From Zonotrichia leucophrys gambelii (taxonomy: Eukaryota > Chordata > Aves > Passeriformes > Passerellidae): a stretch of 64,000 bases of DNA. The notes beneath the pieces were generated by a model. That model ran no database searches and was not told the DNA's origin. It worked only from the letters and a program-made list of their open reading frames with translations. A program made the position numbers and the translations under genes. Shown here one piece after another: positions 24,501-27,500 of the stretch (position 1 is the first letter of the stretch; each line of letters begins with the position of its first letter). The stretch lies in assembly GCF_028769735.1 (NCBI RefSeq), contig NC_088171.1:63230216-63294215 (forward strand), given 5' to 3'.

Positions 24501-27500
24501 ACTTTCTACACTACATCCTAATAACCACCTGAAGAACAACCAGAAAATCTGAGTGGTTCTTCACTGACACCCCAGAGAGGAGGAAAAAAAAAGTGCCCCC
24601 AGTCAGCTCCAGTTTGGATTTGGAAATTAAGCATAAGTGAAAGCTGATGGTCTCTGCTACCCTGAGAGTCTTAGTCTTCAAGGATGCCACGTTCAGGTAT
24701 CATTTTAACATGCTCTGCTTCCATTCAGCAGGGGTGCTTTGGAAGGCATGGGGATCTCCCCATAAGCTTGGGACAGCTCTGAACATTAGTGGCCTCCCAC
24801 TGAAGATTTCCCACTACTTAAATGCTCTAAGAAATGTTTCAGCTGTGCAGACTGAAATGTGGCTGCCAGCAGCATGTCTTTTACTCAACCCTACCACCCG
24901 GCCTCTGGTGTTTCCTGCTCAACCACAGCTATTCTGACTTCTCCAACACCACAGGAAATGGATCATATATACCACTTACTGGATTTAACCCATCTTGCCC
25001 AAACCATAAATTATCATCAAAAAGACAAGAGAAATATATGTCAGAACTTTCCACCTCCCAGAGGGAAGCATTTTTTAGAAATTGGTGGCAACCTACTTTG
25101 CAAGAAGCAAACCCAAGAGCACATGCAAAAATTATGTGATGAAACTTTCATTTTTCCCAGTGACTGGAAATCCCATATTTTAATCACTAACATTTTACTG
25201 TTACACACAGCATTCAGCATAAAATCTTAAGTTTATTTAAAAAAAAAAATCCATGTGGCGTGGTACATCCAAATCTGTGTGGTGCATCCTCCACACAAAC
25301 TTACCAGTGAAGTGTGTGCTGCTCCCTTTGCCTGTTGCCAAATTGTGAATATTCATTCCATGGCTGGGACTCATGCTAGGACTACTGAATGACCGTGGGC
25401 TAACAGGGTAACTGTCCTGAGATTTTGGACTGTGGCCTCCCAAGCACCGCACTTCACTGTCTGTACCATTCACCATCTCTATGAACTGACGCACCCTAAA
25501 CAAAAGGCAAAAAGTTAAGCTAATAAAACCATTTACACATTTCAAATAACCAACGATAGCAATGATTTTATTTTAGTGCTAAATACAGAACAAGTCTGAC
25601 TCAACAAAATGCTGAATGTCAGTAACCCAATCGTCAATAAGCTCTGGAGCATTCCGCCAAAAATACACAACTACAAATTTGTGAGGGAGCTGAACAGGAA
25701 TATTATCCTTGGAGGACAGCCTTTGTCACTAAGTCCTCAAAGTCTAGAGATTTAAACTATATTTTCTTGGTCTGTTTTCTTTTATTGGCAGGGGCAAGGT
25801 TATTTCTTGAGAAAGATATGTCATTATGTTGTCATGTCTGTCATTTTCTCAAGTAAATGAGAACAGAGTTTGACTGTCTGGAACATTAAGCATTAAAGGG
25901 TAACACCTCACATTAAACACCTGCTCTACAAAATAGTTTGAAAAGCAAATTCCCATACAAACCTTCCTTTAGAGGCTGTTGCTCTTTGTGAATTCCATTT
26001 TAGATAAGGAGGTTTTACTATGGACTTTAAGGAAGCTCAGAACTCCTGCTTTATGCTTAAGGCTTCAGTAGCCTCAATAGAACAGGCAAAATTTAGACAG
26101 ACTGAGGAAAAGATAACATAAAATTGATGCTATTGAGTGAAGTCTTTCATCAAAATGTTAGCATTTTGTGAATTCTGTGATAAGTCTGGAGTACTATCAC
26201 GTGAATTCTGTTCAGCACTTGAGCATGACAGACTTCAAACACACTCCCAGTTATTTAACTGCACATAAAATTAAAGTGCTTTGTTCTTAGAGGAGATAAC
26301 GCATTTTTCCCACATTCAAACACTGCAATGTGATACAAAATTCTGGAGAACAGCGCAGCTGGCAAGTAAAAATGCCAGAATGAAGGTGTCTATTGTGTAC
26401 CTGGGAAGCCAAGAGAACTCTTTGGGATTATGGAATTCCACAGTTTTAGCCAGAGTTTTCTAGTAAAGTGGCATGGAATGAAACAGCTCATTTAAGCTGG
26501 TCTTGAAAGTCAGTCACTCCTTTGGAGGAACAGACTGACTTATGCCATCAGGATTCTTAACCTTCTTGGATGTGCTACTGTATCAGTTTCCATTTTAAGT
26601 TTTACTTAACACCCAAATGGGACTAAATTCATTAAAAAGAACTACAGAACTTAGTTCTGCAGAAAAGTCTACAGGGAGATGTGAATTATGCTGCAAACCA
26701 GGACCTCGATGACAAAACCTAGTTAAACATGTAGCAAATAAGAAGAGCATAAAAAAGTGAAATACACACATTTTCTAAAAAGCGCTGCTTAACTTTGTAC
26801 AAATTTCTGTGAAAGCTTTAAATGAGTAACTGTCTTGTCTCAGAAGGTACTGTGCCATCTATAAACACACATCTGTATAATTTGAAGACTCACTTTAATG
26901 CAAATAAGAGATTAGGATTTCTTTCTAGTAAACTTGGATACAACTGTTGTGTTGTTTCAATGGCTTCTCCCATTCTTCCTGCTAAAACCAATTTCTGAAT
27001 TCCTGTTCACCAAAAAACAAATAAGAGATTAGGATTTTTTTCTAGTAAACTTGGATACAGCTGTTATGTTGTTTCAATGGGTTCTCCATTCATCCTGCCA
27101 AAACCAATTTCTGAACTTCTGTTCAGCAAAACCAACATCAGTTAAATGGACAGCTTACGGATTAATACACGTACATAAATGATTAAAAGACACTGCAACC
27201 ATCAATCAACAAGATTTTTTTCCTTTTAGAAAAAAATAGTGTAAAGAAAGATCATGTTTGCTTAAAATGTTCAACAGGAAAATTTAAGAACTGCACTCCA
27301 CCTACATGTATCTAAATGAGAACTCAGTATTTTTATTTATTGCCAGCATCCAACTGCTTTGTAGTCAGACTATGCATTTAGAGCTAGAATAAGACTGCAG
27401 ACACTCTTCTGCGATTTAGTTCTCATTTTCACAACTTTATAAATAAGCACATTTCAAATTACTGTCACTCAAGAACATCCAAATTGCATCGCACTCCTAC

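What the first reader, a model, noticed from the sequence alone, without database searches (positions are those of the whole stretch)
26894..27133. Tandem duplication of RANBP9 exon 8 with one decayed copy
Two direct copies of about 116-117 nt abut at 27017/27018. The downstream one (in transcript order) is the intact CTLH exon. The upstream one keeps an acceptor but lost its donor, carries AGA-to-TGA and a 1-nt deletion, and is about 91% identical. Partial exon duplication inside a conserved E3-ligase scaffold gene gives a dated, lineage-specific event and a natural test of how a cell tolerates a decoy exon.
Basis: seen in the sequence. Interest (0 to 1): 0.82.

Follow-up and report, generated by a model that had tools for sequence, protein, structure and literature searches.

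The report
Ancient half-dead RANBP9 exon copy
In this songbird sequence a piece of a conserved gene's exon was duplicated next to itself long ago; the broken copy now sits inside the intron, where it probably serves as the landing site for splicing the intact exon.

Summary
The tandem duplication is real. In RANBP9 (minus strand) a decayed copy at 27131–27018 lies directly upstream of exon 8 (27002–26894); 105 of 115 aligned columns are identical. The block spans 13 nt of intron and 102 of the exon's 109 nt, so the copy apparently never had exon 8's donor. It carries two stop codons and a 1-nt deletion. It is not lineage-specific: SIRT5 beside it marks the window as passerine, yet a tinamou RANBP9 gene model contains the dead copy's translation across the same junction (YPSLLEKNPNLLFVFW). 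The event thus predates crown birds (published mean ages 72–110 Ma). Best mechanism: with so little intron copied, the live exon lost its ancestral branch point; a CTAAT motif and a pyrimidine tract, mostly from the dead exon, now form its 3' splice site, one of the gene's best-scoring acceptors, while the ancestral acceptor before the dead copy is weak. Using that decoy gives an early stop. Anatomy and the shared junction are shown (the latter from one protein model); branch-point use, decoy silencing and selection are inferred. No RNA and no bird DNA outside the window could be examined.

The parts
26894..27002 (-). RANBP9 exon 8, intact (109 nt), encodes (R)IQKLVLAGRMGEAIETTQQLYPSLLERNPNLLFALK of the CTLH region; donor AAA|GTGAGT
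26901..27015 (-). downstream copy of the duplicated block (13 nt of intron + first 102 nt of exon 8)
27018..27131 (-). upstream, decayed copy (13 nt intron-derived, 101 nt exon-derived after a 1-nt deletion); 105/115 columns identical to the downstream copy
27119..27120 (-). decoy acceptor AG (CTGAACAG|AAG); matrix score 1.97, below 16 and above 4 of the 20 real acceptors scored (13 RANBP9, 7 SIRT5)
27137..27145 (-). presumed ancestral branch-point-like motifs TTAAC (A at 27142) and CTGAT (A at 27138), 24 and 20 nt before the decoy site; the first AG downstream of them is the decoy
27028..27032 (-). CTAAT branch-point-like motif inside the dead exon copy, A at 27029, 27 nt upstream of exon 8, within its 37-nt AG-free zone (a second yTnAy motif, CTTAT, has its A 20 nt upstream, also in the dead copy)
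   Evidence: use as branch point is inferred
27012..27028 (-). pyrimidine tract TCTCTTATTTGTTTTTT formed at the duplication junction from the end of the dead copy, the TT spacer and the T-rich intron end
27003..27004 (-). live acceptor AG of exon 8; matrix score 10.17, 4th of 20; 1.0% of 2683 AGs in the gene score higher
27090..27092 (-). TGA stop met in the frame of exon 7 if the decoy acceptor is used (protein ends ...NRQKVQKLVLAG, 381 aa)
27011..27057 (-). stretch of the dead copy and junction whose translation YPSLLEKNPNLLFVF + TG(G) recurs in tinamou P0061
27009..27010 (-). GT that could serve as a weak donor for the dead copy (TTG|GTGAAC, score 2.5; 20% of 2481 GTs in the gene score higher); the tinamou gene model passes from the copy to exon 9 in this phase
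   Evidence: use not shown
18378..55994 (-). RANBP9 coding exons 1-14, start codon to stop codon inclusive, 693-residue protein

Best explanation
Before the last common ancestor of living birds, a block of about 115 nt covering the last ~13 nt of RANBP9 intron 7 and the first 102 nt of exon 8 was duplicated in tandem. The downstream copy, which kept the exon's end and donor, stayed the exon. The upstream copy had an acceptor but no donor of its own, was absorbed into intron 7, and decayed. Because almost none of the ancestral intron was copied, the live exon was cut off from its old branch point; former coding sequence of the dead copy (CTAAT plus the pyrimidine-rich Leu-Leu-Phe codons fused to the T-rich intron end) became its new branch point and polypyrimidine tract. 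The new site is stronger than the ancestral one, so the decoy acceptor is normally passed over; when it is used, the 116-nt extension brings a premature stop and the transcript is expected to be destroyed. Shown: anatomy, decay, splice-site scores, shared junction in a tinamou protein model. Inferred: branch-point identity, decoy silencing, transcript decay, selection on the dead copy's 3' half.
For: Two copies 91.3% identical, block boundaries at 27131/27018 and 27015/26901. Live acceptor 10.17 vs decoy 1.97 with a matrix from 19 other acceptors of RANBP9 and SIRT5 in the window. CTAAT with its A 27 nt before exon 8 in a 37-nt AG-free zone. Eight AGs, the decoy first, lie between the ancestral branch region and the live AG, so under the scanning model (passages of PMC1431707) the ancestral branch point cannot easily serve exon 8. 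Decoy use gives a stop after 381 residues. Age: SIRT5 of the window is 99% identical to Junco, 98% to Pseudopipra (87% covered), 97% to Erpornis; tinamou P0061 carries the dead copy's R-to-K change and the junction FVFW, 1 of 161 RANBP9-type proteins examined. The 47-nt stretch keeps its translation between passerine and tinamou: simulated probability 0.039, 0.0018, 8.8e-5 and 7.5e-6 at neutral distances 0.1, 0.2, 0.3 and 0.4; chicken–zebra finch dS is 0.418. Six amino-acid-type substitutions in 80 such sites, against 15.9 expected at 0.199 per site: P = 0.004.
Against: No RNA or other bird DNA was examined. The tinamou evidence is one low-quality gene model that also reads through the exon 7 donor (NRQSKA), so it shows DNA content, not splicing, and such a model is only seen where the copy still resembles the protein (ascertainment). 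Within the window the excess of changes in the 5' part (9 of 75) over the 3' part (1 of 40) is not significant (Fisher P = 0.16). The deficit of substitutions fades if the local neutral rate is low (P = 0.046 at 0.15, 0.31 at 0.10 per site). Gene conversion between copies 116 nt apart could also slow decay. The acceptor matrix rests on 19 sites, and 4 of 20 real acceptors score below the decoy. CTAAT could be chance: yTnAy motifs occur near several other exons and CTTAT is a second candidate. The final R-to-K is not unique: a minnow protein (P0133) also has LEKNP. In the SIRT5 list, turtles and lizards (87–88%) outrank the tinamou Eudromia (85%, a partial model), so that list is not a clean tree.
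Confidence: 0.6

Rival explanations
1. Neutral relic: the duplicated block is an ordinary decaying intron fragment. The live exon uses whatever branch point is at hand, and the slow decay reflects a low local rate, gene conversion with exon 8, or the bias of seeing only similar gene models.
For: 5'/3' asymmetry not significant (P = 0.16); six substitutions, one deletion and two stops show no coding constraint; a naive clock gives 34 My, interval 12-74, whose upper end touches the younger crown-bird dates.
Against: Fewer substitutions than neutral at 0.199 per site (P = 0.004) and the 47-nt translation identical to tinamou; some branch point is still needed between the decoy AG and exon 8, and CTAAT is well placed.
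Confidence: 0.25
2. Regulated poison extension: the decoy acceptor is used in some tissues, giving a 225-nt exon with an early stop that lowers RANBP9 level, and was kept for that reason since the bird ancestor.
For: Branch-point-like motifs and AG still precede the dead copy; decoy use gives a stop after 381 residues; 4 of 20 real acceptors in the window score lower.
Against: Decoy acceptor weak compared with the live one. No protein with KVQKL among 161 RANBP9-type proteins, but this is a weak test: only listed cluster representatives were seen, a 381-residue product lies at the length cut of the search, and such a transcript may be degraded.
Confidence: 0.1
3. Alternative (mutually exclusive) exon in some birds: the dead copy with the weak donor at 27010 is spliced to exon 9 instead of exon 8.
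For: The tinamou model P0061 joins the copy to exon 9 in the right phase.
Against: The model reads through exon 7's donor and omits the copy's middle, so it looks like a frame-patched prediction; in the window the copy has two stops; the donor scores 2.5 with 20% of GTs higher.
Confidence: 0.03
4. Assembly artefact.
For: None beyond the tandem layout; the window's own genome could not be searched.
Against: Copies differ at 10 of 115 columns and the junction recurs in a tinamou gene model.
Confidence: 0.02

Closest known systems
Potato RdRp gene: tandem duplication across an intron/exon boundary giving a new intron (PMC4974935; abstract and results section read)
   Same: The duplicated block joins the 3' end of an intron to the 5' part of the next exon; copies differ by a few nucleotides; splice signals re-used
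   Different: There branch site, pyrimidine tract and AG came with the copied intron end, a cryptic donor was activated and a new intron arose. Here only ~13 nt of intron were copied, no new intron is seen, intron 7 is about 116 nt longer at its 3' end, and the candidate branch site is former coding sequence.
Drosophila tandem duplication with intronization of one copy (PMC2891723; abstract and passages read)
   Same: Exonic duplication followed by turning one copy into intron; premature stops in the intronized copies
   Different: There a duplicated AG/GY proto-splice site makes a wholly new intron inside an exon
Tandemly duplicated, mutually exclusive exons (PMC5740500, PMC5224494, PMC7969005; search listings only)
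   Same: Exon copies side by side
   Different: As I understand that class, both copies are functional exons with their own donors; this copy inherited no donor and has stops
Exons with competing 3' splice sites / AG exclusion zones (PMC1431707; passages read)
   Same: Choice of acceptor set by branch point position and first AG
   Different: Here the competing sites arose from a tandem duplication and are 116 nt apart

Membership tests
Intronization of one copy after tandem duplication | Two tandem copies of exonic sequence with flanking splice signal | tested here: met
Intronization of one copy after tandem duplication | One copy removed as intron in mature mRNA | not testable with these tools
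   No RNA; indirect: 160 of 161 RANBP9-type proteins with the exon 7 end motif have a regular exon 8
Intronization of one copy after tandem duplication | Shared by related species with the same breakpoint | tested here: met
   Tinamou P0061, one model, at protein level only
Potato-type intron gain across an intron/exon boundary | Branch site and pyrimidine tract inherited from the duplicated parental intron | tested here: not met
   Only 13-15 nt of intron in the block
Potato-type intron gain across an intron/exon boundary | A new intron with its own donor | tested here: inconclusive
   Only a weak GT at 27010; too close to the live AG for an intron between the copies
Mutually exclusive tandem exons | Both copies open and with acceptor and donor | tested here: not met
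   Stops TGA and TAA, deletion, exon 8's donor not copied
Poison exon (splicing coupled to decay) | Inclusion introduces a premature stop | tested here: met
Poison exon (splicing coupled to decay) | Regulated inclusion in transcripts | not testable with these tools
   no RNA data

The most novel reading that the evidence does not exclude
In all living birds the branch point and polypyrimidine tract of RANBP9 exon 8 are a dead copy of exon 8's own coding sequence, held under purifying selection for at least 70 million years as a splicing element after losing its coding role, while the ancestral 3' splice site survives beside it as a silenced decoy.
Probability: 0.4. Interest if true: 0.62.

Novelty: new variant of a known kind. 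Interest (0 to 1): 0.46.

Why it matters
It would be a natural case in which coding sequence changed job to become the 3' splice site of its own surviving twin, in a gene conserved across vertebrates, with over ten thousand living bird species (PMC12368558 passage) as possible replicates. It makes two questions testable: how a strong new acceptor silences an older intact one lying first in the path, and whether a non-coding relic is kept by selection on splicing alone. It also warns that gene prediction can take the relic for the exon, as the tinamou model seems to do.

Tried and rejected
Searches of the window's own genome (genome search, where own) did not complete; so copy number in the assembly was not checked. 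A degenerate pattern of the junction gave 0 matches in genome contigs and viral contigs, as expected for prokaryote and viral collections. The translation and the query were off frame. The first joined CDS had exon 11 one base short; it was mended, which does not touch the stop positions read. The first donor score for the dead copy (-7.19) used a coordinate off by one; the right value is 2.5. The first 5'/3' test (P = 0.21) counted two ragged ends as differences; the corrected value is P = 0.16, still not significant. A second search with the tinamou region brought no further listed protein with the junction. RANBP9 itself does not place the window: among models with more than 450 aligned residues the fewest differences are in a razorbill isoform (3 of 501) and golden eagle (4 of 536), and several passerine models look mis-spliced. 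The placement rests on SIRT5, where another passerine, Mystacornis, a partial model, shows only 86%; both lists show one representative per 90% cluster and the best 120 only. Literature: RANBP9 with 'exon duplication' gave 0 papers; the capped listings showed no report of this duplication, in a library that lacks most subscription journals. 'Assembly artefact' and 'mutually exclusive exon' were put low for the reasons given among the rivals.

Full report
What is there. The window carries RANBP9 on the minus strand, 14 coding exons from 55994 to 18378 including the stop codon, with GT and AG at all 13 introns, giving a 693-residue protein. Exon 8 is 27002–26894 and matches residues 410–445 of human RANBP9 in a solved structure (7nsc_A). 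Directly upstream lies a second, damaged version. In register, 27131–27018 (dead copy) matches 27015–26901 (live copy) at 105 of 115 columns, with 9 mismatches and one 1-nt deletion in the dead copy, and two T's between the blocks. The local alignment score is 91 against at most 16 in 1000 shuffles. The block holds 13 nt of intron end and the first 102 of 109 exon nucleotides, so it apparently never contained the exon's last 7 nt or its donor.

Decay. Judged by the conserved protein, six substitutions and the deletion fall in the dead copy: R to K at the first codon, I to V, AGA to TGA, A to P, CAA to TAA, and R to K near the end. Two synonymous differences and one intronic one cannot be assigned. 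One caution: 72 of the 161 RANBP9-type proteins have K at the first codon (NRQK); those I looked at are ray-finned fish, while the birds, reptiles and mammals have R. If the old acceptor (first base 27118) is used, exon 8 grows by 116 nt and translation stops after ...NRQKVQKLVLAG, 381 residues.

Which animal. SIRT5, assembled from the plus strand (8 exons, 3785–12788), is 99% identical to Junco, 98% to the manakin Pseudopipra over 87% of its length, 97% to Erpornis, 94% to a penguin and 89% to a grouse. I take the window as passerine. The list is not a clean tree: turtles and lizards at 87–88% outrank the tinamou Eudromia (85%, a partial model), and the partial passerine model of Mystacornis is at 86%. 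RANBP9 alone is too conserved, and its gene models too ragged, to place the window.

Age. P0061, Nothoprocta perdicaria, a tinamou, reads ...NRQSKAVKLVLYPSLLEKNPNLLFVFWVRQ.... The string YPSLLEKNPNLLFVF occurs once in the six-frame translation of the window, at 27057–27013, in the dead copy and across the duplication junction. It includes the dead copy's R-to-K change (elsewhere among the 161 only in one minnow protein, P0133) and the junction-specific V-F-W (in no other of the 161). Of 282 proteins fetched in all three searches, 161 have the exon 7 end motif; 160 of these have a regular exon 8, allowing a few residue variants, and P0061 is the other. The same breakpoint and the same change in a passerine and a tinamou point to one event before the palaeognath–neognath split. 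Published mean ages for that node run from 72 to 110 Ma (Table 4 passage of PMC12368558). Limits: P0061 looks like a frame-patched model. Its SKA is read-through of the exon 7 donor, which the window reads IKNRQSKAG, so it testifies to DNA and not to splicing, and I could not see whether intact exon 8 lies beside the copy in that assembly.

Slow decay. On the published fourfold-site divergence of the zebra finch lineage since its split from chicken, 0.199 (PMC2911116, section read), 15.9 changes are expected in the 80 amino-acid-type sites of the dead copy; six are seen (P = 0.004; 0.046 at 0.15 and 0.31 at 0.10 per site). A naive clock would say 34 My, interval 12–74, young for the shared ancestry. 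In a simulation (K2P, ratio 4, 400,000 runs a distance) the 47-nt stretch 27057–27011 keeps its translation with probability 0.0018 at a total distance of 0.2, 8.8e-5 at 0.3 and 7.5e-6 at 0.4. These numbers favour constraint, but the stretch was found because it is similar, so they are too strong as they stand. Within the window the changes are 9 in the 5' 75 columns and 1 in the 3' 40, not significant (P = 0.16). Gene conversion remains possible.

How it probably works. What looks like the old 3' splice site stands in front of the dead copy: TTAAC and CTGAT motifs 24 and 20 nt upstream, a short weak tract, AG. The live exon received only 13–15 nt of intron. Upstream of it now lies the dead exon's tail, whose codons happen to contain CTAAT (A at 27029, 27 nt from the exon; a second motif, CTTAT, has its A at 20 nt) and, fused to the T-rich intron end, TCTCTTATTTGTTTTTT. 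The AG-free zone is 37 nt and contains these. With a matrix built from 19 other acceptors of RANBP9 and SIRT5 in the window, the live site scores 10.17 (4th of 20; 1.0% of 2683 AGs in the gene are higher) and the decoy 1.97 (18% higher; 4 of 20 real acceptors are lower). Eight AGs beginning with the decoy separate the old branch region from the live AG. As the 3' site is normally found by a downstream search from the branch point (PMC1431707 passages), the live exon most likely needs a branch point inside the dead copy. So the likeliest reading is a change of job: former coding sequence of one copy became the 3' splice site of the other. This step is inference; no lariat, RNA or mutational evidence was available.

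What it is like. Tandem duplication with intronization of one copy is known: in Drosophila (PMC2891723, abstract and passages) and, closest in layout, in potato, where the block also crossed an intron/exon border (PMC4974935, abstract and results section). In potato the branch site and tract came with the copied intron, and a new intron arose. Here they did not, and no new intron is seen; the existing intron was lengthened. I found no report of this RANBP9 event in the listings, in a library without most subscription journals.

Verdict.

Noticed in passing
window 31386-31364 (minus): RANBP9 exon 5 is a 23-nt microexon; at least six listed models (P0002, P0011, P0016, P0017, P0018, P0061) have altered residues here that look like read-through of the exon 4 donor, as if the microexon had been missed.
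   Followed up: partly
window 21775-21769 (minus): RANBP9 exon 11 has an unusually weak donor, TGG|GTCTGC, second lowest of the 20 donors scored (1.42); several listed models change sequence near this exon.
   Followed up: no
P0061 (Nothoprocta perdicaria gene model): Public gene model has part of the dead copy in place of exon 8 and reads through the exon 7 donor; a mis-annotation, or a gap where exon 8 should be.
   Followed up: partly
window 3785-12788 and about 12979-16864 (plus): SIRT5 (8 exons, start to stop) and parts of NOL7 lie on the plus strand beyond the 3' end of RANBP9.
   Followed up: partly
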